Source: Parietichytrium sp. I65-24A (taxonomy: Eukaryota; Sar; Bigyra; Thraustochytrida; Thraustochytriidae). From it: a stretch of DNA of 64,000 bases. This document shows positions 6,731-51,706 of this stretch, one piece after another. The position numbers and the translations under genes are program-made. Numbering within the stretch: position 1 is the stretch's first letter; each line of letters opens with the position of its first letter. Under the pieces are notes generated by a model. That model searched no databases. It saw only the letters and a program-made list of their open reading frames with translations, and was not told the origin of the DNA. Location: contig BLSF01000029.1 of assembly GCA_012862575.1 (NCBI GenBank), forward strand, positions 1 through 64,000, written 5' to 3'.

Positions 6731-9700
6731 TCAGTTCCAAAGGACAACGTATTTGATTTTCACGCGCGCCGGGTCGAACACGATATACTCGGACGCTCCA
6801 CCTGTGATTTGAGGTGGCGCTCGGGGGTCCTTAGAAGCATCAATAGTTGTTCCCAGAGACAACCCCACCCCTTTCTTCGTGAGGAAGAGCCCAGATGGAT
6901 CAGGGATGCGTCTTCCTGGGGCATAGAGCGAGTCGTAGTTTGTTGGGGGCTCTGATACCTCCCCTTCCTCTCCGGGTCTGAGTGTGTATGCGCGACCAAG
7001 AGCGGCTTCGACAACAAGAGTTATTTTTGTTCCATCGAGTCCGAGCTTTGAGCTGCCGCCAATAGATCTTCGTGATGAAGAATACTGTGAGGCTTTTTGA
7101 AAGCTGTCCGAAGCGTAAATTCCTTTGCCGAAGCGATATCCGTTCGCTGGCGCTTCTGGTGGTGCAACACAAAGTCCCCGAAGAAGTATACCAACTACAT
7201 TGGAGACAGCGGTTGAGTGGAAGAGCAGTCTGTTGCAAGGAAGACCACTCTTATCGGAAGAAGCGCGATCGGAAATGTACGGTTCAAATCGCTCGGCATC
7301 CTCAAATCGGGTGAGTCTCAAAATACTGGAGACATGTGCGTGCGGAGCAGAAGCATGAACGTAGGATTCAAGTAGCTTGAACTTGTCAGTATCATGGGCT
7401 AGCGGGCGCACCTTGACGCCAAGCAAGTCGTGGAGTGTCGAAAGCCGCTTTGGAAGGGGATCGTCAATGGATACGCCGCCAATCACAAAGTTGAGAGTTT
7501 CTTCCACGTCCTGAAGTGAAGCAAGCAAGGCGGTCTCCTTTTGCAATTCTGCATAGGTGCTGATTGGGGTCATCCTCGTCAGACTATCGCGCTCCAAGCT
7601 TCCAAAGTCTCGAGGGACGGCACGATAAACTTGGTCGCTCAGTTTGCGAATTTTGGCATTTACAGCGTGGATCTGCGAGCTTTGTTCCTTAAACCTTTGT
7701 CCGCGCAGAAGGCGCAGCTTTTCGCATACACTTAGCAATTGCTCGATTCGCGACAGAAGGTTGTAGGCACGGGAGAATGAAGCTTGGCCGAGAGGCATTG
7801 GCAGCGGCGAACCCAGCGAATCTGAGCGGTTTGATCGCAGGGCCCGTCGAACGGTGCTGAGATCAGTGATCAGGCGCAAGAAGGAGCTCGTTTCGCGTGG
7901 CATCAGCTTATTCAAAAGCTCATTTTCGGCACGGACCTGAGCCTCCGACCGTTTTGGCTGCATTTCCTCGTAATGTTTACGAACCCATTCATAACTTGCT
8001 GACTGGACTGGCTGGTAATCCGCTCCGATTATCGACCTGGTCTTTGCCTCGAACACAGAGTGAAAATAAGCCGCTGCGGAGTCAAAATCCCTGTAGCCCT
8101 TTTGCCGGGTTTGATTGGCATCATTGGTACGACCCCAGCGCTCGATTACGCGATACTTTGCGAAATGAGCAGCTTGCGCAAACATGTGCCGCGCCGTGGT
8201 TTCTCCCTTGGCATGTTCAAGCATTTCCTTGACGGTATTCTCGTTGGCAACTACCAGTTGAAGAATATGGACAGAGTTGGACCCATACATTGAATCAGAC
8301 GAATTGCTTTTTTGCAAATACGCGTCGTATACCGTGCCTTCATCATCGACATAAACATCATAAGCGCTCCGTGCATCGAAGGAGTTGTCAATAGGGATAA
8401 CAAGCCGCCCTTCTTTTGCAAGCTTCCGCTGCCGCGCCTCGGCTTGCTCCACAATGCGCTCCCGCTCTGATGACATCCCGGCCCATTTCTTCCTCAGCGC
8501 TGCTAAAGCTTTAGAGTAAATTTGCCTTTGGGCATGCCTCTTGCTCGCGGAGACTTTGGCAGCCGCATCGCGCTCAGACCGAGCGTCTTGCATCGCAGCT
8601 TGTGCTTCGGGAGAGTCAAACACCCCTGGCGGCAAGGTGTCCAGCAGGTGGTTGCGATGAATCTCTGGAAGCGCTCCCAAAACCCAAGCTGCAGACTTGC
8701 CGGCACTTGACTTGACCAACACATCCCCTCCTTTGCCCACCAACACGCTCATAACGTCGGTGTCAAGAGACACGCCTTCACTGCTTGATGTGAACGCCAA
8801 GTGTATACACGTATCGCCATCTCCGTTCTTCGTGTTGATCTGTTGGGGTCCTTGAGGCAAATCGAGCAGCGCACTGATCATCGGTAGCCTATGCAGCCGC
8901 ACCGCCATATGCACTGGTGTGTCTCCGCTTGCGCTTCGCGACGAGACAAGCGCAGCCATCATCTTCTCACCGAGATGGCTAGCAAGGGCTGACACTGTAG
9001 CTGGTGGATGGTTGTCGACAACGATGTGATGGAGCAACGCTAACTTTTGGTTGTCGTCACTGTGCACCACTGCAGGCTTAGCGAGGGCAATCCGCGCAAC
9101 CATGTCGAGGCGTTTCTGGCAATCTTCCGCGCTTACAGACCCTGAAAAGCGAAAGAGCTTTTCCAAGATACTTCCCGCAAACTCCCCTTCTTCAATGTCC
9201 ATCGATTGAAGAAGCTCTTCCGTCCACTCTAGGGATCCACCAGCTATGCTGGCAGAGAGCGCCTTTTGGACGTCACACTTGGGATGCTGCAAAAGCGCAA
9301 ACACAACTCCAACCATATTATTTTTCACGGCATGCTCGTACACCGAAACCTCCACCTTCGCTGAGGGCTTTGCAGCCCATTCAGCTGCTGTTTGGCGCAG
9401 CTTGGCTCGATCATTTACAGCAGCAACGCCACTGTTGCTGAGAGCGTCATCGGACGCAGAGGCAATATCCTGATATGTCCATCCTCTCAGACCGCTCCGT
9501 AGCTCATTCGCAAGCCCCGCCGAGGTCAGAACGCCTTCAATGTCTTCGGGCGCTTCTCTGAAAAGTCCTGGCTCGAGCTCAACGCCTTGCTCCATCAAAA
9601 AGACGGCCACGTGCTGAAAAGAACATTCTAAAGCCACGCCAAGAGCGGAATTTCCAGTTTTGTTTCGGATGTTCAAAAGAGCCGGGCAACGTCGAAGGAG

Positions 9701-12700
9701 AAAGGAAACGCACGGGGTGCTACTGACATTTGCGCAACACGAGTGCAGAACAGAATTCCCCTCTTCGTCAATGCCATCCCACGGCAAATCAGAGCGCCAG
9801 CGTTCCCAGGTGATGAGCGATCGAATGGCACTGTCACCAATGTCGCCTGTTCCCGAGGAAAAGCGTGAGTAGCTATGAGAGGTGCCGCCGAAGCCCTTGC
9901 CTCCTGCGCGGACGGCGTGTGGCGCACAGGGTTTTGGCACGATGGCACCCTTTGGTGATTCGCGGCGGCCAATCTCGGTCCCTGAAAATAGAACGTGGAG
10001 CAAGTTCCTGCCATGGGCGTCAGGCTTTTTGACATCAGTACTCTGCTGGGACAACAAAAGCTTGCAAAGCTCAAAAGACTGGATGCAAGCCAACAAGAGA
10101 GGTGAGCGGTCGTCTGTAAGAGTCGTGAGATTCAGGTCTGCGGGACGATTTCCCACCTCTAGTACCCTTTTGAACAGGTCAACCTTATTCTGGATTGCCA
10201 GCAGATGCAGGAGTGGCCAACCAGTGTGCTCATTTTGCCGTTTAGCAAGCTCCCGCTCTCGAAGTCGCTGAAGACGGCTCTGTTCCGTCTGATGTCTGAG
10301 TTCTTCCACTGTCTCGGTGTGTCCATTTTCGTTGTTCTCTTCGTCCTCGTTCTCCCCGTCCGAACCTGCGCCGGTGGCGGTCTCCTCCTCTACGTCGTCA
10401 TCATCGTCTGCTCCGTTTGCGGCCTCGTCGCTGTCTTTTGAAGATGACTCTGGGTTCTGAACTGGTTCTCGCACGATTGCGTTGGAATCGACTATACCGT
10501 ACATCATCATAGTTGGGGCATCGCCAGACGTTTGTTGACAATCATTTGCGCCTGAATCTACATTGCACGAGCTTTTCCCAAGCATGGCTTCAAGAAAATT
10601 CCATCGCCGATGCGCCGCAGCATAGAGAACAGTGTTGTAGCCCGTGCGGTCAAACTCATTGATACTTTCAAAGCCGCCGCGGTTCAGAAGAAGCTTGAAA
10701 GCTTCAACGTTACGTTCAAAGCTATCGTCCAGCACCTCTGCCGCGAAGCGAACCAGAGAACGCCCATGGTCATCGCGTTTGTCGATGCGAGGAAGTTCTG
10801 ATGGAGCTAGCGGATCGGGCCCCAATTCAAATGCTGAGACTCCCCGGTCGAGCAGATAATTCAACACGCGCTCGAGGGTAATGGGACCACACATTCCGCG
10901 ACGAGACCTTTGCAGAACGTAATGCAACAGGGATGGAGTTTCCACAATCTTCTCACTTGCCTTGTCTCCCAGGAGCTCTACAGCTTTGTTGCTGTGGCTG
11001 AGAAATCTAATGATGGTGTCCTCGTCGATAAACGGGAGCTTCCGCTTCTTGGCCTCGCGATACTTTTGATCGCCCTTTCCAATCTTGTTCCCCCATTCTG
11101 TGACACCGTCCACGCCAGAATAGCAGCAATGCGTGGTCTTACCGTTTACTTTAGCCTGAACAACACCTCCATTCGCTTCAAGAACCTTTTGAATGATATG
11201 TTTGCGATGAGAAAAGACTCCCGTAAGAACGACAAACCATCCCGCAAAGGGGGATTCCACATCCATCCCTGCGTCGAGCCCACTTTTCGGTGCTTCTTTC
11301 AGCCTGCGGTCCTCTTCCTCTTGTTTCTTCTTCATGGCCAGCGCTATCTTGGCACGCTCTTCTTTGGTATCGAGCGAGACGCCGGCTTTGAAGAGGACAT
11401 CTGCGCATCCTAGACTTCCCTCTCGCATAGCTCTGAGTATGGCTGGCTCTCCGTTGGCACAAACGGATCGAGGGCACGCGCCTTTCGTCAACAGCAGCCG
11501 CACAAAGTCGACACTGCTAAGCGTGATCGCTCGATGGAGCATTGGTTCCGGAACTTCTTTCCTCGGAGCGTCAACCGATATCCCGATTTTGTCGATGAGA
11601 TACTCTGCAATCTCTAGAGCATCCCAAGTAATAGCGTGGGCGAGGTGTAAATGGGTTGCTTGGGGATGGACTGGGTTAGGCCTCTTGTCTTCCCTCTTGT
11701 CTTCCTGGAGGTCGCCGTCTAGAGCGTCCCGAGGATTATCGTGAGCGAGGTGTAAATGGGTCGCTCGGGGATGGACTGGATCAGCCCTCTTGTCTTCCTG
11801 GAGTTTGCCTCCAACGAGCATCTCGGACTCCGGTTCTACCTCTCCGTCTTCAACGCGATATTTGAAGACAAGCTCGTCAACGGTCGGCAAATCATCCGGG
11901 ACGGAAATCGCACCTTCCAGCAAAGCTCGCACGGTTGCCAGACTGTGCTTTTGGATTGCATCGCACAGCATCTCGGATCCACTCAGAAGACATGGCTCGC
12001 GAGTCAGCTCCTTCTTGTAGTCGTCGTGACAGATCAAGAGGCGGAAAAAGCGAGTGTCTCCATCTTCCCGCAACGAAGCGCGCAGCGTAGTTGCTTGGCT
12101 GGTCGGCTGTCGGAAAGCCGCGCTCTGCTTTGCATCAAAGTAAAACGTGACCCACGCAAGATTATGTAGTCGGCCGGCCTCCAAGGCTTGCCCTGTCATG
12201 TTTTTCTTCTGCGCTTGGACAGCGGCGTGCAACCCATCCTCCTCCTCCTCGGATAAGCCAACTGTCAGGAACTTCAACGCGGGGCTCGGCTGTACGATAT
12301 CTACAAATTCTGGCAGCGGATTCTCTGCTTTGATTTCACCCTGTGCTGCCCCCGCCTTTTCGACCATCGCTGACGTACCGTCCGGCGCCACCGCTGCGAA
12401 ATTGTAGGCTGTCCAATTAAAATCGGTTGAGATCGTTACATCGCCACCAGCTTTCATCAGCGCTTCGAATATACCAGCGTGTGAGTTTAGCGCCGCCAAG
12501 TGGAGCGGGGTTACATACTTGCCAAGAGCAGGCCCGTTCACAGAGTCCGCGTCGAGCTCCGACACGTCACGCAGTTCCTGAACATCCACAGCTTCGATTG
12601 CGGCAAGGTGGAGCCTGCGTACGCCCTCCTGGATTCGCCCCGCTGCCGCGAGCGCTTGCTCTACCTTGGACATCTCTTCAGAGTCATTTTCTTCATCGCC

Positions 12701-13633
12701 ATCTTCCACCTTCCCCTGGGGCACTTCTTTCTCTTCCTTCAGAGATCTGGAGTCGTCAAATTCATCAGACATCTCCACATCCTGCGAAGCACCTGCCGCA
12801 GCAGTTTGCCCGCCCTCCTCAGGAAGCACCAGACCAAGACCAAGCCGGTGGCGCAGCAGGCGTCGGACAAGGCTTACCCGACCCACCTTCATGGCTTGTA
12901 CTGTAAGCGAGTCCACCATATCATCCGGCGAAGGGTGGACTTGAAACAAAAATTCAAGCGCATCTTTGGTGAGGTCCGGGCCGTAGCTTGTAACGAGACT
13001 GTCGAGTAAACCGAGCCGACGCCTGTTTTGGGCAACTTCCTCGCACTTAAGCGGGAAGAAACGAATCAAGGTTCGCGCACACTCCAGATGGCCCAACTGA
13101 ATCGCCTTGGCCAGTCCACTGGTGTTGTCCGAGGCAGTGACTTCGACACCCATCTGCCAGCGCACTCCACGTGCTCGAAGAGCTTCGTCAAAGTCCCCCC
13201 TAGCTTCGGCGGCGAGAATCTCGGCCGCAATCGATTCAGAGACAGCCTTTCCACTCTCCACTTCTCGGAACTCGCGGAAATGCAGGAGGATGCACTCGAG
13301 CCTCTCCGCGTCGTTTCCGCACACTGCATTCCACGCGGCACGCTTTCCAACCTTACTTGACTCCAACTCATTTTCGACGTTCAGCAGACTGTACTTGGCT
13401 TGCGCCGGCGCGACTGGCACATCCAACAACACTTTGACCACATCGTCATTGAGCTTGCTTTCGCTCAATCGGTCGATCTCGTCCCTTGCCCTAGCTTTGA
13501 GCGCCTTAGTACGTTGTGCTTTGGATTGTCTCGCCACCTTTTCCGCTGCGGCCACGGTCTCATTCTCTTCCACTTTAGCCGCTTTCACGCCTTTTCCGCT
13601 GCCCTTCTTGTTGCTTGCTTTACGCTTACCCAT
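6731..13633 (-). CDS. ankyrin/BRCT/WGR/PARP poly(ADP-ribose) polymerase
   Basis: This 2,300-residue single-exon protein starts at ATG 13633 with a lysine-rich, nuclear-signal-like N-terminus. Ankyrin-type repeats recur, clearest near residues 375-400, 700-760, 990-1010, 1130-1155, 1330 and 1570-1615. A BRCT domain lies at about 795-885 (GWFVVLTGVF start). An acidic low-complexity stretch is at about 1065-1130 and a WGR domain at about 1800-1890, with RWGR at about 1829. The PARP regulatory helical domain is near 1940-2060 (PMPLGQASFSRAYNLLSRIE). The catalytic domain fills the C-terminus, with the H-Y-E triad visible as LLFHST (about 2137), GIYASDSFQKASQY (about 2173) and SEYIVFDP (about 2281). 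The retained glutamate predicts chain-forming ADP-ribosylation from NAD+, triggered by DNA breaks through WGR. The layout recalls the nematode tankyrase-like PME-5, with an added BRCT. A 35-codon tandem duplication lies near residues 610-675. Confidence 0.93.
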   Translation of the reverse strand: MGKRKASNKKGSGKGVKAAKVEENETVAAAEKVARQSKAQRTKALKARARDEIDRLSESKLNDDVVKVLLDVPVAPAQAKYSLLNVENELESSKVGKRAAWNAVCGNDAERLECILLHFREFREVESGKAVSESIAAEILAAEARGDFDEALRARGVRWQMGVEVTASDNTSGLAKAIQLGHLECARTLIRFFPLKCEEVAQNRRRLGLLDSLVTSYGPDLTKDALEFLFQVHPSPDDMVDSLTVQAMKVGRVSLVRRLLRHRLGLGLVLPEEGGQTAAAGASQDVEMSDEFDDSRSLKEEKEVPQGKVEDGDEENDSEEMSKVEQALAAAGRIQEGVRRLHLAAIEAVDVQELRDVSELDADSVNGPALGKYVTPLHLAALNSHAGIFEALMKAGGDVTISTDFNWTAYNFAAVAPDGTSAMVEKAGAAQGEIKAENPLPEFVDIVQPSPALKFLTVGLSEEEEDGLHAAVQAQKKNMTGQALEAGRLHNLAWVTFYFDAKQSAAFRQPTSQATTLRASLREDGDTRFFRLLICHDDYKKELTREPCLLSGSEMLCDAIQKHSLATVRALLEGAISVPDDLPTVDELVFKYRVEDGEVEPESEMLVGGKLQEDKRADPVHPRATHLHLAHDNPRDALDGDLQEDKREDKRPNPVHPQATHLHLAHAITWDALEIAEYLIDKIGISVDAPRKEVPEPMLHRAITLSSVDFVRLLLTKGACPRSVCANGEPAILRAMREGSLGCADVLFKAGVSLDTKEERAKIALAMKKKQEEEDRRLKEAPKSGLDAGMDVESPFAGWFVVLTGVFSHRKHIIQKVLEANGGVVQAKVNGKTTHCCYSGVDGVTEWGNKIGKGDQKYREAKKRKLPFIDEDTIIRFLSHSNKAVELLGDKASEKIVETPSLLHYVLQRSRRGMCGPITLERVLNYLLDRGVSAFELGPDPLAPSELPRIDKRDDHGRSLVRFAAEVLDDSFERNVEAFKLLLNRGGFESINEFDRTGYNTVLYAAAHRRWNFLEAMLGKSSCNVDSGANDCQQTSGDAPTMMMYGIVDSNAIVREPVQNPESSSKDSDEAANGADDDDDVEEETATGAGSDGENEDEENNENGHTETVEELRHQTEQSRLQRLRERELAKRQNEHTGWPLLHLLAIQNKVDLFKRVLEVGNRPADLNLTTLTDDRSPLLLACIQSFELCKLLLSQQSTDVKKPDAHGRNLLHVLFSGTEIGRRESPKGAIVPKPCAPHAVRAGGKGFGGTSHSYSRFSSGTGDIGDSAIRSLITWERWRSDLPWDGIDEEGNSVLHSCCANVSSTPCVSFLLRRCPALLNIRNKTGNSALGVALECSFQHVAVFLMEQGVELEPGLFREAPEDIEGVLTSAGLANELRSGLRGWTYQDIASASDDALSNSGVAAVNDRAKLRQTAAEWAAKPSAKVEVSVYEHAVKNNMVGVVFALLQHPKCDVQKALSASIAGGSLEWTEELLQSMDIEEGEFAGSILEKLFRFSGSVSAEDCQKRLDMVARIALAKPAVVHSDDNQKLALLHHIVVDNHPPATVSALASHLGEKMMAALVSSRSASGDTPVHMAVRLHRLPMISALLDLPQGPQQINTKNGDGDTCIHLAFTSSSEGVSLDTDVMSVLVGKGGDVLVKSSAGKSAAWVLGALPEIHRNHLLDTLPPGVFDSPEAQAAMQDARSERDAAAKVSASKRHAQRQIYSKALAALRKKWAGMSSERERIVEQAEARQRKLAKEGRLVIPIDNSFDARSAYDVYVDDEGTVYDAYLQKSNSSDSMYGSNSVHILQLVVANENTVKEMLEHAKGETTARHMFAQAAHFAKYRVIERWGRTNDANQTRQKGYRDFDSAAAYFHSVFEAKTRSIIGADYQPVQSASYEWVRKHYEEMQPKRSEAQVRAENELLNKLMPRETSSFLRLITDLSTVRRALRSNRSDSLGSPLPMPLGQASFSRAYNLLSRIEQLLSVCEKLRLLRGQRFKEQSSQIHAVNAKIRKLSDQVYRAVPRDFGSLERDSLTRMTPISTYAELQKETALLASLQDVEETLNFVIGGVSIDDPLPKRLSTLHDLLGVKVRPLAHDTDKFKLLESYVHASAPHAHVSSILRLTRFEDAERFEPYISDRASSDKSGLPCNRLLFHSTAVSNVVGILLRGLCVAPPEAPANGYRFGKGIYASDSFQKASQYSSSRRSIGGSSKLGLDGTKITLVVEAALGRAYTLRPGEEGEVSEPPTNYDSLYAPGRRIPDPSGLFLTKKGVGLSLGTTIDASKDPRAPPQITGGASEYIVFDPARVKIKYVVLWN
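11613..11803. repeat. in-frame tandem duplication inside the PARP gene
   Basis: Two units, 11613-11710 and 11718-11803, start 105 bp apart (35 codons). Both run from TCTAGAGC through GCGAGGTGTAAATGGG and GGGGATGGACTGG to CTTGTCTTCCTGGAG. The first has an extra 12-bp CCCTCTTGTCTT repeat. Both encode a variant of an HPRATHLHLAH / HPQATHLHLAH segment. The reading frame is kept. The similarity is high enough to suggest a recent event. Confidence 0.9.
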
Positions 13634-39391: not shown

Positions 39392-42300
39392 CTAAGCTTG
39401 CTTCAACAGACTGTTCATGAAAATTTTCTTGAGTACTTGAGGGATTTCAGACGTACTGTTGCCGTAAGGTAGGGCAATTCGTGGAAAGAAAAGAGTTAGT
39501 GCTGGTGTTTGTCTTGACCTGTGAAAGACTCTGGCGAAGACTACTTACCTGAGGGTTACGAAGGCTCTGTCTGACGGAAGCTCCGAGCGCAACCGTTGCG
39601 CTTGATCGCCCATCGAACCGATGAAAAGAATGAAGACGTTCACCCGGTCGTCCATGTCCATTAAGGACTTCAGATCTGCGGGCTCAATGCCATATTGTTC
39701 CAGATTCGCGTCGCTGAGCAGAATCACAAAGCTCTCGTCGCTTTCTTGTGCGGCAATTTCCTTGATCGCAAGTCCTGTAAAAAAATCTCTCACCAGTTAG
39801 TCTCAATCAACGAATTAAAACAGCTTGTAAAGCAAAAGAGGCCAATGTAGATACTTACGCGCACCATCGAGTGTGTTATCTCCACTCGAGCAAGTCTCGG
39901 CGTGCATATTCATTGCACGCAAGACATCAAGCCGTTGTTGGTCACTACCCACACCACGTGGGCCTTCTTTTACAAATACAAGATCGTCTGTGCTTCCGCT
40001 GTGACCCCTGATCTGGTACAGCACTTTGTTCTCGTGGCCCTTGAATGACTCAAATACCATCACAGCGCTCTCCAAGCTCCGCTCCAAGCGGCCGTCCGCA
40101 GCATAGGATGCCATCGAAGACGATACATCAAAAAGGAATGTGATCCGCTTTGGAAGGCTTTGAAATGAAAATGGGTCAGGCTTTTGTTCGCCTCGGCGCT
40201 TGTAAATATTGCGGGACCCCGTCAAACCGTCGATAAGCTTTCGGTCATCAAGGTCACCAGCGTCCTTGTTGCGCAGCCATACTCGCTCGTTGCGCTTTGC
40301 CTGAAGAGCATCCAGCGTCGTTCGTAGCTCGTGTATTTCTTGTTTGACGGCTTCCTTGTAGCGAATGTAAATTTGGGCATCTTGCTTGTTCATTTCGAGC
40401 TCCTGCAGAGATGCATTCCAATTCTCCTTACTCAGTTTCTTCGCAGCTTCCCTGGCCTCTCTAGACATCTCATCCTGCTGTTGCTTGGCGCGCCTGCGAT
40501 TTGACCCAATGCTGGAGGATGTATCCCCAGATCGCTTCTCTAGAAGCTCCTTCTCCATCGCAGCAATGTTTGCGCGAAGTTGGGCAGCCTCGGTTTCCAG
40601 GCGAGGATCACGGCCCTGGGATTGGGCTAGAAGCGACTCTACGCGCGACAGTCTTTGCCTCTCACGCTTGAGCCTCTCCATCAAATCGGTGTTTGGATTC
40701 TCGGTTTCTTCTGCTTCCAGTGCTTCTGCAAGTCGGCGCTCTAGACGTTCTTGCTCGCTCATGAGCTTTTCATCGTGGGGAAAAAGCTTGAGCATCTGTT
40801 GAAGCTCGCTTAGTCGGCCCTCGATTTCCCGCCTCGCTCGGTCTGAGAGCTTCCTTGGGCCGTGAAATTGACCAGGCTCAGGAATGAAAAGCGGATCACC
40901 ACCCCCGCCTTTGCCACCCCCTCCACCACCACCACCACCACCACCACCGCCACCGCCACCTTGTCCTCCACTCCCCTGACCTTCGCCTCCTTGCCCTTGC
41001 CCTTGGCCACTCCCAGAACCCCTTCCATTCCCATTCCCATTCCCGTTCCCATTGCCCTTTCCTCCATTTTGGCGCGAATTTGATCTCCGCCCGCGTGATC
41101 GTGCGCGAGTGCCTTTACTGCCTCTTTTGTTTGGAGACCTGCCTTTCCGCGATCGTGATTTCTTTCGCACAAGGACAAGTTCGCCTTCTCCATTCATCTC
41201 ACCATCCTCCAGCTCAAACTCGCCGTCCATTTCGATCACCTCCAACTCATCTCCTTCGCCTTCCTCTTCGCCAAATTCCTCGTCAAAGTCATCCTCGTCA
41301 TCTTCATCCATGTTTTCAAAGTCAATGTCGAGTTGCATATCTCGCGTTTCAGTACCCACCATTTTTTTCCAGTTCTGATGAGAAGCCTCGAGCTTGATTG
41401 CATCAACTTCGAAAATGGTACCAGACCCAGTACGATCCAGGACCAGTACGTTTCCGTCCGGTAGTTCCACCGAAAACAAAACTTTTCTGCGGAGTCGTGA
41501 AGAAGCATCTACACCTGTCGCGCCGTCAACTTGGTACTCGTGCGAGGCTGTGCTTAGGAAGGCAGCAGCGCTGTCCTCCTCCTCATCGTCGTCCTCCATG
41601 TCCGCTGCAAGTCGGCCTGACCACATATTCCTTGCCGCTCCAAACAGAGATGTATCTGGAAGGGTGAGTTTGACCTGTCGAACCTGGCTACGCGCAAAGT
41701 CTACCACCTCGAGACAGGCTTCTTGGGCGAAACCGATATAACCAGGCTGCTGAGACACTGGCTGGCTGTTCCTCTGTTCAGAAGACACGGCCGGATCTCG
41801 AAGCAACACATTGCATAGCTGACCAGTCTGCGACAAGAAGGTATTTGCTCCGAGATATTCCTCGGCTCCACTGCCCACAACAGAAGTGGAAGTTGTTCGC
41901 AGGAAAGATCTCAGGTGCGCTTCGAGATTTGTCGAGCCAAAGGCAAAGACGGGCTTTTTCGCTCGCGCAGCATGCACTGCATTGTGGTAATCGAATGTGT
42001 CCACAAGTCCGCCGAGGAGCTGGCCCAACGTGCCCTTGCTGTACAAGCACCGGCGATCTCGAGCCATACCTTCCCGCATCGGAAGTTGCTCAGAAATCAT
42101 TGATGTGTTGGCAATGTAGGCGTGCTCAGCATGAAGACGTTGCGTCGAGCCGGTTCCAGCTCCTTCTACAAAGCGTTCCACGCGTTCGACTACGAAACTT
42201 GCGTACCGAATAGTCTCAAAAGCTTCCTCTGTCGACGTGTATTGATCGTGGCTCGTTGACTCGTACACATCGTCTTCACGAGAGGCGGAAGCAGGCTCGC

Positions 42301-45300
42301 TCTCGATGCCAGCCAATGACACGAGCGGATCTACTTGAGCAAACGTCTGAAGTGATCTGATCCTGTCACCTTCAGCATGGAGTAAGTAAAGCCGGTTCAA
42401 AGGGGTTGACCCAGAAGCGCTACTGAGTGCGCGTTCGAAAGCTCCTTCATGACCTGCGGACTCAGTGAGGAGAAACTTGGTCGATGATACGACTTCCAAA
42501 TTGTCGATGAACACACCAGTATGCACCTCTGTGAAGGTTTCCAAATGCAGGTTCAAAATGAGCAAAGTGGACGAGTTTTGTTGGAAAAACACAAGAATGC
42601 CTTGACTAGCGCAGAGATCCGTCAGCATTGTGATTCTCTGGCGTTCAGTCCAAAGCCCAGGACCTTCACCCGGACCACGCGGGCGATGGCCTTCTCGGAA
42701 TGGCTCGAGTGGTATGTGAACCAGAGTCTGCGTTGAACTCTTAAGATCAATTATATGCACGCACTGTTCCTCTTGCACGAACATACAAACCCTGTGCGAA
42801 TTACGCATCGGCGCAAGATTGCATCGAGATGGCGCTGGTTTGCGCACATTTTTAATCACCTCTCCTTTGTAGTTGAAGTGAGGAAAGATGATGTCGTAAA
42901 CATCATACTTTCGGAAAGAGGAGGAGATGTGATACAAATGCAGGCTGTGGTAGGAATCGTTAGCAACGACAAACAGCGAGCCATCAGCAGCCATCGTCAA
43001 GTCCAAAACACCCGAGCTTGGTCCAGAGAGTTGGGAGCTGAGTGGAAGCGCGAAGGAAAAGACTTGCTCGTTGAACGTTTCAATGCGTCCTTCATATCGA
43101 GACAAGTTGTTCTTTCGCTTTGCGGAGAGGATTGCGGGGTAAACTGAAGAACCGTTGTTCCCATTGTCAAGGCGCCAAGGAATATCCTGGACACGGTAGC
43201 TGCAAATAAAAGGCACTGCCTCGGCACTGCGTCTCCACTTTTCTGTCAACATCGGGGTCGCTAAAGGCATCACATTCCCCATTTTCACTTTGTATGCAGC
43301 TTCAAGACCAACGGGAATGCCATGCTTTTGAAAGAGATTCATGATGATCTCCTTTTCCTCAGCTGCATACTGATCAAAATCGAAAACATTTTGGAGAATC
43401 ACTGCCATACCATCGTCAGGAAATCTCTGCATGTGCTTCACAATGTTGACCAGTTCCCGAGTGCTGTATGGGTAACTTATGACACCCTTTTCAACTAGTC
43501 CTCGAAGATCGTGGAACGCAATTGACAGTCTTCGTAGCGTCTCCTCTGGAACGTTCGGAGCGTAACTGCGAAGCAGGTGCATTTCGGATTCCTCGTCGGG
43601 ATTGTCCACGACATAGCAGGAGAATACATCTCCGATTTCCCGCATAAACTCGTTGCCCATGAATGGATACCCAGGTCCTGTAGTCGCAGCAAAGAAAGAG
43701 GAAAATCGAAAAAGAGATTGTGAGCGAAATGCGTTGTTCCTGTCCACTCCCGAGTCCAAATATACACAGATTACCCAAAGACAGCAGCGTCAAAAGCCAC
43801 AACTTACTGTTTGCCAAAACGATGGCGCGAAAGTCTGGATGCACGACAATTGTGTTTCGTTTCTCTGAGTCACCAAGAGATCTGCTCGCTTCCTTTTCTG
43901 CGATGGCCCGAGAAAGTAGGCGTCGGCCATCAGCAAGTATCATTTCTCCATCAGCGAGTAGAGATTTCAAGATGGCTGTCACATGCGTAGGAGCTTTATC
44001 AGCTTCGTCGATAACCAATGTGTGTCCATGAATGGCAGCCTTCACAAGAGGAGAGTCTTCAAATTTTATAACTCCGTCCACGACAATCGGCTGGGAAGTG
44101 AGATGATTGACTGTTGTGTCTCGGTCAAGTTGAATGTACTCTCTCGGCATGAAGAGAAGCTGCAAGAATCGATCTGCCAATTTGTTCTTTCCAACACCTT
44201 GATTGCCGATGAGAAGGAGATGTTCGCCAAGTTGAAAGTCGACAAGCATGTCGCGGAGAATTCTGGATTGCCTGGGATTGTCAAAGAACAATGTTTGTGG
44301 GACGAGGAGGGCATTGGAAGGTTGGTGAATTCTTGCGCTGACGGCGCCAATCTCAACTGTGCCGATTTGCGGCCGCTCTCGCCGCAAATAGCCGGTCTTC
44401 GACCCACCCTTTGGGACGACGGGCTCCGGAAACATGTTGACTTTGATCTTGAAACCTTTCGCCTCAATGTCTTCATCCTGGGCCTGGATGTTCAAGTCAA
44501 GCGTAGAACCCCCGGGCATGATTCCTGCAGCAATGAGTTCTTCAGTCAACACTTCTTTGGCCAGAGGCGGAAGGAATCTGGCAAGGCACGCATTTTGAAT
44601 CATATCACTGAGCGTTTCGCCGGTTTGACTCATGAACTTCAAGCGACGCGCAATCCTGACTAGTTGGCGGGTCGTAAGGGAGGCTGCCACGGATCGAGCC
44701 TCGTCATCATGTCGAATGCGCAGCGCATTGACGAAGTCAAGAAGACGCTGCACTTGCTCCGAAGCTGTCCTTTGTGTCTCGCTGTCACTCTGACGAGTTT
44801 CCTCAAGATCGACATCAGAAAATGACTTTGTGACGAGTTGATCAATAACGGCAGCCTCCTCTGCCTTCTGAAGCGCTCGCATCCAAAGAAAGGGAGCAAA
44901 CGAGCTGTTGATTTCTGGTGTCAACCACGTTTGCTGAGCCATCGTTTGCCCAGCCAATGACTGAGGTCTGGCGACGCTCACGATCCGGCACATGGGATGG
45001 ACGGCAAGAACTTCGAGTTGACTGTTCTCATCCAGGCGATCTTCTTTGCGGATAATGCGGCCTTCGGCGCGAAGTTTATCAACCACCTGTGCCGGCAAAA
45101 ACCTTGTGCCATCTGGGAGGATCAAAAACCTCTCAGAGAGGAGGGATTGTAACGTGGCGAGGGTTTGAGCCGGAACCTGTTCCAAGCCGTCGAGTACCAC
45201 AATACTGCCATGCATGCAAGCCAGGACAAGCGGCGATGGAAGCCAGACAGTGTCTCCGTTCAGCAGGGTAGTTCTTCGCTGCAGTAGATCCTGGGCTGTC

Positions 45301-47024
45301 ATGTCCTTGTAAAGTGGGAAATACAAGAGTGGTTTGTCACATGTTGCTGCAAACTGCTTGACGAGCAAAGACTTGCCACACCCGCGAGGACCGACGAGGC
45401 ACATATCTCGCCCAGCGCCATGCATCAAAAGCATTTGCGTGAGGATTTCAGAGTGGTACTCTATTGGAACATACTCTGAGAGCCAATTCCTAGTAGCTGG
45501 AAGCTTCAATGCCACAGAAGAGGGGCACGCGGTTTCGTAGACGACACCGTCAGACGGGTCCAGGGAATAGCCTGACGCGGACGTGTAGAGATAACCAAGA
45601 TATTGCGTGCGAAGGTGCGCATTCTCTGCACTCATTCCAACATCATCCTCCCGTCGCTCCAATTCTTCTCTCAGCTCTTTCCATTTCCTTCGCTCCCCGG
45701 TTTCCGGATCCAAGTGCACAGGATTCCACCTCTCCGAAAGCGAATCGGCGCCAAGAGCGTCGACCGGTACAGCCCCAAAGCGGGAGAAAACGTCCATAAC
45801 CAGTTGGGTCTGAAGCGAATCGAACCAAGGCAAAGAGGGATACGGGTAAATGAGGCCCAGGACAAATCTTAAAGAGAGTGACGGGTAAGCCTGGAGAAGC
45901 GAGATCGTCAGGCCAAGTTCATGCGGGAACTCAGCTTTACGTAAGAGGCGCGGCGGAAGTCCCTCTAGACCGTGATATTCGGCGGCAATAAATGCTCCTC
46001 GTATGCCCAATACAGCTTGATATTTCGCAAGCGCGTCCTGGGTGAGAGGTTTCTGCAAAAGCTGCATGCGCAAGTTGTCTTGGGATACCGAGAAGGTTGG
46101 AACATCAAGAGCTTGAAAGCGTGACCGGAACGGGGGGTCCAATGGATTGCCGTCGTATTCCGGAACAGGCAGGCCAAGGGCTAGCACACGAAACCGTGGA
46201 TCGACCTTGACCAGCGCAATGTCCTTCTTGTCACCATTGGATTCATTATTTCCCCTCTCGATGCGAATCCGGTTTTCTTCGGACTGACTTAGGGCGTCGA
46301 AGCGGTGCGGTGCGGTGAGAAAGCGCCCGTCTTCCAGGTGCATCTCGCGATTCTCCAACAAATTGTTCAGGACAGAAAGAATGTTCCGCTCCGCCTTCTC
46401 GACACCTTCCAGGATCAGAACTCGACCACATATAGCAGCTCGAGCCGCAGGGCCATCTACAAAGATGACAGAGCTGGATCGAATCTCGCGCCGCTGAGTG
46501 AGGTCGCTTACTGTCGTGTCCTGCGAGATCGCTACGAACTCCACCTCGCGATTCACCAGCTCACAGTAGGCAAGGGCTAGCTCTCGCTTCATAGATCCGC
46601 ACGGCCCGATCAAGAAGAGATCCTGGTGCAAAACATCCTTCTTCATCATGAAAAGAAACGCGCTCAGGCTCGACTGGGTGAGGTAGAATCTCTCCACAGT
46701 AGAATGATCGGCCCCCGAACGCACCGCGCTTGGGGCATTTTCATCACTTTGCCGCGCTTGCTGCGGGATTACAAACTTTTCCAGGTACCCGCTCGGAACA
46801 AGCTCGGGGCAGTTGGTCCGTTCCAGCTGGATACTGCACGCCACTTTCCCTTGTCCATCGATGATACTCAACGTATTTTCATTCGAGCAGTATGAGAGAA
46901 CCAACTGCCCACTTGGCCCGTCGTCGCCGCTGGCTGACTCTGCACTGCGGAGAAGGTGCTGACGGAACTTGCTCACCCTCCGCGACGCCGACCCACCTTG
47001 CTCGCTCTCTCCCCCGACTCCCAT
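39392..47024 (-). CDS. VWA8: VWA8-type AAA+/von Willebrand A protein, 4 exons
   Basis: Exons are 43808-47024, 39859-43677, 39549-39774 and 39392-39455, joined across introns of 130, 84 and 93 bp, each with GTAAGT donors and CAG acceptors. Phases are 1, 1 and 2, and the frame is preserved throughout. The product is about 2,441 residues, against roughly 1,900 in human VWA8. Three AAA+ modules have Walker A regions at about 138 (GPCGSMKRE, degenerate), 542 (GPRGCGKS) and 938 (GNQGVGKN), the last with VIDEADKAP. A long middle region includes an acidic stretch near 1870, a basic SRSRKGRSPNKR block, and a glycine-rich run with 16 consecutive glycines near 1985. The VWA domain begins near 2250 with the MIDAS DVSSS. 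The last exon encodes TSEIPQVLKKIF, matching the VWA8 C-terminus. Animal VWA8 is a mitochondrial ATPase of unclear role. The start ATG at 47024 lies before a GA-rich leader. Confidence 0.93.
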
Positions 47025-48555: not shown

Positions 48556-51121
48556 TCAGCCAAGTGACACAGAAGAATCATGGGAAGCAAACGAGAGCGA
48601 GCGAAGGTCCTTCTCGAGGTCCGTCTCCGTCGGCTCATCGGGATCGATGCACGAGGAGCTGCGGGAGGAAAGAAGCGTTCGAACTGACTTTAAGGAAAAA
48701 TGTCCGCCGCTCTTTTCTCTGGTGGGAAGGACTCGCCTTAGACCACGAACGAAGTCTTTGACCGTCCACTTGCTGTTATTCAGATCCATCCCTGTCCGAA
48801 TCCAGTGCTTGACGAGTTCTTGGTACGACCAAATTGATTTGTTCAGCATCACAGGGTCCATGATGGGGTCTCCGTTCAGATCACAGGACCCTGCAATGCT
48901 TTGCGTAGTTGTTCCCGCAATATCCTCGAAAGCTGGGATTGCTTGTTCCCGCTGAAATCGCTGCCACTCCGGCCATTGTTCAAGCCAAATCTCAAAGTCT
49001 GCATCAGAAATGGATAGCGCATCTTGCACAGTTGCCTCGAGTTCTGATCCTTCGACCTTAATGTAGTTCGGAAACTTCATCGCAGTGGCGCTGACAGGGA
49101 GATCCAGCTCGTCCTTGAGTGCGATTTCGAATGCCAAGTAAACGCACACATCGTCTACAAAGCCGAGGCTCTTAATTTTCTTTCGCACGTGCTCGTGCAC
49201 CACTCCGAGCCGCATGACGCTCAAGCCGACTTCCCGCAGTTCACTTTCACAGTGCCGGGCATGAGCTACTTTAACAATAAGGGTCATCTGATTGAGCGCC
49301 CAGATCGGCTGTACAAATTCAACGCACGCACGAACGAACAGCCAGAAAGCAAAACAAACAGGGATATTACGTTCAGTAAAAAGAAAGTCGCGGTGATAAA
49401 CAAGCGGGCCGGGACAGGCTCGACAACAACACAACTGATCACCCAGCCATCCATATCTAAATCATACTTACCTTGTCACCGCAAGCATCAACCGAATCAT
49501 TCATTCTTGTGACAATTTCATCGCGAGCAACCTCGTCATTGCATACCACTTCAAGGACTTCGTTGACTCTCCGAATAAGACCGGGACGCATTTCCAAATC
49601 CTCAAACTCTTTGGAAATACGGAGGTGTGAGAGAAATAGGATCAAGCCTCGCTCGTACGCACGGTTTACAAATTGTTTGACAGGTAGTTTACATTCCCAC
49701 ACCTCTAGAGCCTCGTCTAGCGAAACAAAGCGGTCCACGAACTGATTTCGATCTTCGATGGCCACAAAAAACTGCATACCTGGGATGTCTGCATCTCGGA
49801 TCCGTTCCAGCTCTTCTTCCAAAAGGCCCGCACCGGCAAGGTAGACATTGCGGTTTTGACCGTACCAAAGTGGATCGGATGAGCAGCCCAAATTGAGAAT
49901 CTCGTCAGGAAGCCGACGGAGTGACGTGCAATCTTCCAAATGTAGATCTCCACCGATGATAATTTCGCCCGGTAGCTCTACAAGGGACGTACAGCCACGC
50001 AAAAACAGATCCCCGCCCACGCGAAGGACCTTGGGGAGTTTTGTGATGTCAATGCAGCCGCTGAGATCCAAGGAGCCACCCACGTGCAAGACCTTGGGGA
50101 GATGTTGGAGGTTGGTGCACTCGCATAGGTCGAGATCGGTCTCAACGATTAGTGTTTCTGGGAGGGTAGTCAAGGCAGTGCAGCCACTCAAATCAAGGCG
50201 CTGAACACGCAGTTCCTCAGGTAACTGCTTGAGTGCAGTGCAGTAGCGCAGGCTCAAAACGTGATCAATTTGAAGCTGCGGTGTATCTACAGTCTCGAGG
50301 TTGATGCAATTATCAAGTGTCAAATTCCCACCCACCGTGAGCTTCTTGCTTGGCAAAGATTTGAGCGAGGCGCATCCGGCCAGGCTGAGGTTTTCTTTGA
50401 CCGATAACTCGGCGGGCAATTCAACTAACTTTGTGCAGTGGTCCATGGTTAGAGAACCTTTTACGCGCTTTAAGTTGTCTGGGATGGCCTCCAATAGGCA
50501 ACAAGCCGTGAGATTCACATTTCGCCGGATTCGGGCCCGTTTTGGGAAGCAAGATAGCTCCATACAGCCAGACAAGTCCAGGTCAAAGGCGGCAAGGTCC
50601 TCCGGAAGCTCGGCAAGTTTCAAAGCACCTGATAAGTCAAGGATGCCGTCCACCCGCAGAGAGGAGAGGTTTCTCATCTCGGTACAGCCACGAAGGCTGA
50701 GCCCCCCACCAATGACCCTTAGGGGAGGGAGGCATTTAGTCCCGCTCAAGTCTACGACCTTGGAGTCCCACACATGGACACAGATTCTCTCGCCCTCTTC
50801 AAGGGTAAGTGGCCAGCTCCTGAGCTCCGTCAAGGTATTTTCCCCAGAGCATTCAGCCAGCAGCTCCCTGATGCGTTTTCTATCCGCCTTGGAATTGCGT
50901 AGAACCGTGTGCGCCCAATTCCTGAGCTTGTGTATTCTCCGCTTGACAAGCACTTTATTGTCCATCAGTTGCTCCATGATCGATCCTCTCTGCTGCGGCA
51001 GCCCGCCTCCATGCCCAATTGGCCTCGTTGCCCCCATGCGACTAGCTCGTCTTCTTCCGCGAAAAACCCCCGAGTTGCCTTCCATGTCGGTGAGGCCACG
51101 GAGCCCAGTGATGTGCGCCAT
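48556..51121 (-). CDS. leucine-rich-repeat protein with IpaH-type NEL ubiquitin-ligase domain, 2 exons
   Basis: Exon 1 is 49472-51121 (ATG at 51121, 550 residues) and exon 2 is 48556-49287. The 184-bp intron has AAG|GTAAGT and CAATCAG|ATG borders in phase 0. The product is 793 residues. A helical N-terminus (about 45-110) precedes some 13 short repeats (about 118-410) of the form L-x-L-x-x-C-x-x-L-x-x-L-P. The cap NVYLAGAGLLEEELERI resembles the repeat cap of bacterial NEL effectors. The NEL domain runs from about 445. The catalytic-type cysteine is C547 in ACGDK, within the CxD motif. Exon 2 continues with FVDDVCVYLAFEIAL and then the EIWLEQWPEW block, both typical of NEL. Known NEL proteins (IpaH, SspH, SlrP) are bacterial effectors that charge ubiquitin on this cysteine. 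From about 680 a segment GDPIMDPVML...SYQELVKHWI resembles a U-box. The tail is serine-rich. The gene looks intact and is probably a cytosolic ubiquitin ligase of transferred origin. Confidence 0.85.
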
Positions 51122-51637: not shown

Positions 51638-51706
51638 CATTGGCTACATTGGCTACATTGGCTACATTGGCTACATTGGCTACATTGGCTACATTGGCTA
51701 CATTGG
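51638..51706. repeat. 9-bp minisatellite (GGCTACATT)n
   Basis: About 7.6 perfect units of a 9-mer. It would encode repeated N-V-A on the minus strand, which creates a spurious open frame. Confidence 0.97.

What the first reader, a model, noticed from the sequence alone, without database searches (positions are those of the whole stretch)
48556..51121. Intron-bearing eukaryotic gene for an LRR-NEL (IpaH-type) ubiquitin ligase
Seen: about 13 short LP-type repeats, then a domain carrying a CxD motif (C547, D549), the block FVDDVCVYLAFEIAL and the W-rich EIWLEQWPEW block, in the order found in IpaH, SspH2 and SlrP. The frame is split by a 184-bp GTAAGT...CAG intron three codons after the cysteine, and the neighbours are ordinary eukaryotic genes. 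Known: NEL ligases are described as effectors of Gram-negative bacteria that use host E2 enzymes. Inference: an ancient bacterial gene was captured, gained an intron, and serves the host as a ubiquitin ligase.
Basis: partly seen in the sequence, partly recalled or inferred. Interest (0 to 1): 0.92.

Follow-up and report, generated by a model that had tools for sequence, protein, structure and literature searches.

The report
Protist's own hybrid NEL–U-box ubiquitin ligase
A marine protist appears to carry its own family of a ubiquitin-tagging enzyme known so far as a weapon that bacteria inject into host cells, and in this family the part that docks the ubiquitin carrier seems to have been exchanged for a different docking module.

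Summary
The gene is eukaryotic and spliced. The 800-residue product scores 85.7 bits against the NEL model (cut-off 24) and keeps C547-x-D549. The intron is 163 bp (49309-49471), not 184: the junction restores the relatives' DKPIWALNQ motif. It is one of 12 NEL loci in a 42.5-Mb genome. Relatives with a named organism come from the thraustochytrid Hondaea fermentalgiana.

The unexpected part lies behind the NEL core. In solved NELs a helical E2-ubiquitin-binding "thumb" follows (PMC12506513, passages). Here homology stops about where the thumb begins and a U-box-like domain follows. Relatives in Endozoicomonas and some Chlamydiae share this layout; most chlamydial NELs fetched do not. The protist-type proteins form one clade (100/100): one acquisition, then expansion, fits best; direction is unresolved (AU p 0.30).

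Likely mechanism: LRR binds substrate, U-box brings E2~Ub, the NEL cysteine takes and passes on ubiquitin. Activity is untested. I found no report in print (open-licence papers only).

The parts
49472..51121 (-). exon 1: N-terminal region, LRR domain and first half of the NEL catalytic subdomain, through K550
49309..49471 (-). 163-bp intron, GTAAGT...TACAG, interrupts the frame three codons after the catalytic cysteine
   Evidence: junction restores DKPIWALNQ; NEL score 88.8 bits against 75.7 for the 184-bp alternative
48556..49308 (-). exon 2: second half of the NEL catalytic subdomain, U-box-like domain, serine-rich tail, stop
49883..50767 (-). about 13 leucine-rich repeat units of about 21 residues (LRR_EndoS type), residues about 119-413
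48943..49666 (-). NEL catalytic subdomain (Pfam PF14496 match, residues 486-672; interrupted by the intron)
49475..49483 (-). catalytic CxD motif, C547-G-D549
48724..48894 (-). U-box-like domain, residues 689-745, where solved NELs have the E2-Ub-binding thumb
48559..48723 (-). serine-rich C-terminal tail, low model confidence

Best explanation
The window holds an intact, spliced gene of a labyrinthulomycete-type protist for an E3 ubiquitin ligase with three working parts: an LRR that binds substrate, a NEL catalytic subdomain with C547/D549, and a C-terminal U-box-like domain that stands where other NELs carry their helical E2-Ub-binding thumb. Proposed cycle: the U-box-like domain recruits the cell's own E2~ubiquitin, C547 takes the ubiquitin by transthiolation, and passes it to a lysine of the LRR-bound substrate. 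It would be a U-box/thioester hybrid, working like the RING-then-cysteine relay of RBR ligases with unrelated parts. The family entered the lineage once, most likely from a symbiotic bacterium that already had the NEL-U-box layout, then multiplied and exchanged its substrate-binding front. Shown by computation: gene structure, domain order, homology, single clade, predicted folds. Inferred: activity, E2 binding by the U-box-like domain, the relay, substrate role of the LRR, direction of transfer.
Confidence: 0.6

Rival explanations
1. The U-box-like domain is a fold without E2-binding duty (scaffold, dimer contact or autoinhibitory lid); the NEL core recruits E2~Ub through other surfaces, so the enzyme works like IpaH without a thumb.
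For: Protist tails are divergent: no Pfam U-box hit in 27, and 17 of 40 miss E 0.01 with the bacterial tail profile.
Against: It stands where the E2-UbBD is in solved NELs and a recognisable tail is aligned in all 12 own loci, including L019 with a degenerate catalytic motif.
Confidence: 0.22
2. The ligase activity is U-box-driven (direct transfer from E2) and the NEL core is a passive substrate or ubiquitin clamp.
For: U-boxes alone are active ligases (established knowledge); one own paralog, L019, has lost CxD.
Against: C-x-D-K is kept in 31 of 32 aligned sequences.
Confidence: 0.08
3. The biological role is cell-autonomous immunity or surveillance: variable LRR, ARM and SPRY-LRR fronts sense invaders or effectors and the NEL-U-box back tags them.
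For: Exchange of fronts and 12 loci; two Hondaea relatives bear disease-resistance names given by annotation.
Against: No expression or challenge data; ordinary substrate recognition explains the same fronts.
Confidence: 0.3
4. The transfer ran from a protist to bacteria: NEL-U-box arose in a eukaryote and symbionts took it up.
For: A tree with all sampled bacterial U-box NELs on one side is not rejected (p 0.304); U-boxes are typical of eukaryotes (established knowledge).
Confidence: 0.12
5. Bacterial contamination, misassembly or pseudogene.
For: NEL is otherwise known as a bacterial family.
Against: Intron exactly at the motif; codon usage correlates 0.85 with the 8 pooled neighbour frames, within the neighbours' own 0.68-0.91; eukaryotic flanks; 12 loci on 12 contigs; relatives in Hondaea. 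A pattern scan of GTDB genomes with the protist motifs gave no relative, but such scans are insensitive (compare).
Confidence: 0.02

Closest known systems
IpaH / SspH / SlrP ligases (NEL family, bacterial type III effectors)
   Same: LRR in front of a NEL catalytic subdomain with CxD; Pfam PF14496; the 9 Foldseek hits at E <= 0.001 for a relative's model are these structures
   Different: Encoded by a eukaryote, multigene; a U-box-like domain stands in place of the helical E2-UbBD thumb; intron here
NEL-type proteins of Endozoicomonas and Chlamydiae (P0043, P0039, L020, L021, L048)
   Same: NEL core and U-box-like tail; LRR in P0043 and P0039; best profile hits with a bacterial name, E 1.8e-36 (P0039) and 2.4e-35 (P0043)
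   Different: Bacterial; another catalytic-loop motif (for example CDDRVI or CDDRII instead of CxDKPIWALNQ); P0039 and P0043 33-34% identical to P0017; L048 has a front that is not recognised as LRR
U-box ligases (Prp19, E4B, CHIP, AvrPtoB, LubX)
   Same: Predicted fold and profile similarity of the C-terminal domain
   Different: The domain here is below Pfam's U-box cut-off and fused to a thioester-type catalytic domain
RBR ligases
   Same: Works-like only: E2-binding module plus catalytic cysteine in one chain
   Different: No RING or IBR match; different folds
Algal NLR-like genes said to carry a NEL-like domain (PMC7145615, passages seen)
   Same: Earlier claim of NEL-like sequence in eukaryotes
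   Different: In the passages the basis is a superfamily described as showing LRR motifs; the catalytic domain and a U-box are not described there; not tested here

Membership tests
NEL (Pfam PF14496) catalytic domain | Profile score above curated cut-off | tested here: met
   85.7 bits, cut-off 24
NEL (Pfam PF14496) catalytic domain | Catalytic CxD motif | tested here: met
   C547-G-D549
NEL (Pfam PF14496) catalytic domain | NEL fold | tested here: met
   [not shown]
IpaH/SspH-type NEL ligase | LRR directly in front of NEL | tested here: met
   About 13 units, LRR_EndoS 29.1 bits (cut-off 27.9)
IpaH/SspH-type NEL ligase | C-terminal E2-UbBD thumb of two long antiparallel helices | tested here: not met
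   Profile homology ends about at the thumb boundary, structural match to SspH1 at 622; both models show hairpin-helix-strand-helix there instead of two long helices
IpaH/SspH-type NEL ligase | Encoded by a Gram-negative bacterium | tested here: not met
   Eukaryotic flanks and intron
IpaH/SspH-type NEL ligase | Ubiquitin thioester and ligase activity | not testable with these tools
   needs biochemistry
U-box | Pfam PF04564 score above cut-off | tested here: not met
   No hit on the spliced protein at E 0.001 nor on 27 tails at E 10; bacterial L048 12.6 bits, cut-off 21.4
U-box | Profile-level homology | tested here: met
   direct protist-to-PDB comparison alone is not significant
U-box | U-box fold | tested here: met
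   [not shown]
U-box | E2-contact residues | tested here: inconclusive
   By eye: hydrophobic loop-1 residue and helix Trp kept, loop-2 Pro replaced in protist tails
RBR | RING1-IBR-RING2 domains | tested here: not met
   No such Pfam hit at E 0.001

The most novel reading that the evidence does not exclude
A third way of building a hybrid (RBR-like) ubiquitin ligase: a NEL thioester core whose E2-binding thumb has been replaced by a U-box, born in or carried by protist and animal symbionts and now working as an endogenous, expanded ligase family in thraustochytrid-type protists. These would be the first native eukaryotic NEL ligases.
Probability: 0.5. Interest if true: 0.92.

Novelty: new variant of a known kind. 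Interest (0 to 1): 0.86.

Why it matters
NEL ligases are described as bacterial effectors whose catalytic domain has no structural homology to eukaryotic E3s (PMC12506513, passage), and where they came from is open. A multigene eukaryotic family, plus bacterial relatives with the same layout in symbionts of protists and marine animals, makes the origin testable. The exchange of the thumb for a U-box would be a natural domain swap showing that NEL catalysis and E2 recruitment are separable modules, of use for engineered degraders that already employ NEL domains (PMC12203931, passages). It also shows that names such as 'importin', 'tubulin' and 'disease resistance protein' in a thraustochytrid genome hide a ligase family.

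Tried and rejected
Rejected: the 184-bp intron. Contamination and pseudogene. A viral source: no relative in viral contigs by pattern scan; phage records gave two copies of one phage with an LRR match and one record with a 25% match over 79% of P0017.

Led nowhere: naming the organism through rRNA (not completed); a plasmid search with a 24-residue piece (no match; its first letter was mistyped); naming the bacteria around P0038 (20 proteins, none with an organism). dN/dS of L016/L017 gave 0.87, no support for constraint. The AU test did not resolve direction. Plain Foldseek on the exon 2 model was busy twice; only the VIA second look was obtained. Column shuffles: two of three sets finished (0 of 200 as good in each), the A1-A4 set crashed; one search timed out. 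GTDB pattern scans are weak as tests of absence: one search found 2 loci where the profile search found 51 genomes in one phylum.

Rows left out before counts. Tree (68 rows): left out were L017 (near copy); P0022, P0023, P0025-P0028, P0048 (short or partial); 17 further bacterial proteins close to rows kept; chlamydial L022 (same as L021), L031, L034, L039, L041, L044, L046, L050, L052; and P0058-P0061, whose source is not named and may be pathogens; the 30 chlamydial frames are those left after the three with a U-box-like tail (L021, L025, L048) had been set aside, so this is a statement of 3 in 33 and of the profile's specificity, not an independent control; that the 30 carry a thumb was not tested by structure. 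One search scored only the 7998 candidates sharing most words.

Full report
What was checked. The minus-strand frame starts at ATG 51121, runs open to K550 and is followed by GTAAGT at 49471 and a stop. Relatives decide: the DKPIWALNQ motif is rebuilt exactly by 49472|49308; 19 of 20 relatives and 9 of the other 11 own loci keep PIWALNQ exactly or with one change, and the Pfam NEL score of the spliced piece is 88.8 bits with it against 75.7 without. The full 800-residue product has NEL at residues 486-672 with 85.7 bits (E 4e-24) and LRR_EndoS at 29.1 bits (cut-off 27.9). About thirteen LRR units lie about 21 residues apart.

Host. Nine neighbouring frames were scanned; eight have Pfam hits, among them PARP with ankyrin repeats, Myb, PNK3P with a HIT/zinc-finger end, kinesin, TPH, dynein-related AAA and G-alpha. 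Codon usage of the gene correlates 0.85 with the eight pooled neighbours, which correlate 0.68-0.91 each with the rest. The genome has 42.5 Mb in 172 contigs and 12 NEL matches on 12 contigs. Of 20 relatives in a protein search, 5 show an organism, each time Hondaea fermentalgiana, a thraustochytrid, and one is an MMETSP transcript product marked complete (P0008). The window's organism is therefore probably a labyrinthulomycete; no call names it.

Family. Eleven other loci have open frames through the NEL domain. Fronts differ: LRR; ARM repeats (L013, L016, L019); SPRY plus LRR (L010, L011) (7 frames scanned). L017 is a near copy of L016 and may be an allele. C-x-D-K is kept in 11 of 12 own loci and 20 of 20 relatives; L019 lacks it. 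Pattern scans with the protist motifs gave no relative among GTDB genomes or viral contigs, a weak test.

The tail. Each own locus continues past the W-rich block with a conserved stretch; consensus of 27 sequences: G....DPVRL....WSL.DLL.HWV.TG.DLNN...S. Pfam has no name for it, and its profile alone touches the Prp19 U-box only at E 0.9. The answer came from bacteria. A profile search with own NEL sequences returned 47 proteins at E <= 0.1, among them NEL-type proteins of Endozoicomonas and of a Rhabdochlamydiaceae symbiont of Dictyostelium. A scan of GTDB genomes with such proteins gave an Endozoicomonas and a Chlamydiae MAG. In these bacteria the tail is more recognisable: its profile finds U-box, RING or unspecified E3-ligase chains in 11 of 12 PDB hits at E <= 10 and, with more sequences, in 13 of 16 at E <= 1, led by LubX (1.9e-4) with Prp19 at 1.2e-3. 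The protist tails match the bacterial tails with 91.7% and 93.7% probability and the profile of eight U-boxes of the same genome with E 1.5e-4, probability 51.9%; none of 200 column shuffles did as well. A profile from bacterial tails alone finds the window protein best of 40 protist-type tails (20.4 bits, E 8.3e-7 for 60 sequences); 23 of 40 reach E 0.01 and 29 reach 0.1. Of 33 distinct chlamydial frames 3 have such a tail; the other 30, set aside on that ground, stay above E 0.1.

Place of the tail. In SspH1 the catalytic subdomain is 405-622 with C492, and the E2-Ub-binding thumb is 623-697, two long antiparallel helices and a small helical end (PMC12506513, passages). The own-NEL profile matches 12 solved NEL sequences, each match ending at profile position 223-247 of 299. 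Structural alignment of both models with SspH1 ends at its residue 622. Other NEL chains end near the equivalent point, if the construct limits given in the paper are used as offsets (my inference): SspH2 715 against 711, IpaH9.8 468-472 against 470, 3ckd 503 against 501 for IpaH1.4. In 4 of 8 NEL rows the last aligned model residue is 183, inside the U-box-like part, so the aligner does place some of it there. In a plasmid search with a bacterial NEL-U-box piece 181 records matched and none covered 80% of the query; each of the 20 listed matches ends at residue 225 of 315, before the U-box-like part. I read this as replacement of the thumb, not addition to it.

Origin. In a tree of 68 NEL cores the 33 protist-type rows form one clade (100/100) on a long stem of 1.36 changes per column, beside three bacterial rows without names (98/88); the U-box-bearing rows and one relative without a U-box match (L023) stand against 19 chlamydial rows without one (100/98). 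Holding the sampled bacterial U-box rows and L023 together is not rejected (p 0.304), so whether the protist clade is nested within the bacterial ones is open. NELs are common in Chlamydiota: 51 of 232 genomes. A single transfer from a bacterium that already had the U-box is the most economical reading; the reverse is not excluded.

Mechanism. Shown: anatomy, homology, predicted folds. Inferred: the U-box-like domain binds E2~Ub in the thumb's stead, C547 forms the thioester, LRR binds substrate. Against: divergence of the protist domain below Pfam's threshold, replaced loop-2 proline (by eye), no activity data, and a neutral-looking dN/dS in the one close paralog pair tested.

Novelty. Searches in the held open-licence library listed no report of eukaryotic catalytic NELs or of NEL-U-box proteins; most subscription papers are not in it. 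A 2019 paper claims NEL-like sequence in algal NLR genes on what its passages describe as a superfamily with LRR motifs (PMC7145615). Pfam tags already sit on the Hondaea proteins, under unrelated names. The 2022 NEL review treats the family as bacterial in the passages I saw (PMC9320238).

Counts were mended (19 of 20 and 9 of 11 for the motif), the chlamydial comparison is now told as selected, the pattern scans as weak, and the alignment rows that reach into the U-box-like part are told.

Noticed in passing
window 6731-13633 (-): 2300-residue frame with ankyrin repeats, BRCT, WGR, PARP regulatory and PARP catalytic domains.
   Followed up: no
window 39815-43759 and 43491-47024 (-): A 1314-residue frame without Pfam match overlaps, in another frame, the dynein-related AAA frame upstream; possibly one spliced gene.
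   Followed up: no
window about 51640-51705: Tandem array of a 9-base unit (TTGGCTACA) upstream of the gene, beyond a GA-rich stretch (by eye).
   Followed up: no
L019 (G000:C19:523181-523726): ARM-NEL paralog with the CxD motif lost and a very long branch (3.16): probable pseudo-enzyme.
   Followed up: partly
L016 and L017: Near copies (96.2% over 936 codons), one on a 22-kb contig; dN/dS about 0.87, allele or recent duplicate.
   Followed up: partly
P0005, P0007, P0012, P0015, P0019: Hondaea NEL proteins carry names such as importin alpha, tubulin chain and disease resistance protein; P0012 joins NEL and tubulin and may be two merged gene models.
   Followed up: no
Chlamydiota genomes searched: 51 of 232 genomes carry NEL matches, up to 12 scored in one 1.6-Mb genome (G050); most of the frames fetched have no U-box-like tail.
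   Followed up: partly
L014 (G000:C4): Very long NEL protein with repeated LTH..LR..GI units in the middle, SAM-like by eye; not scanned with Pfam.
   Followed up: no
phage record MH898687.1, 27185-27562: Edwardsiella phage Edno5 encodes a stretch 57.6% identical to the LRR part of P0017.
   Followed up: no
[not shown]
   Followed up: no
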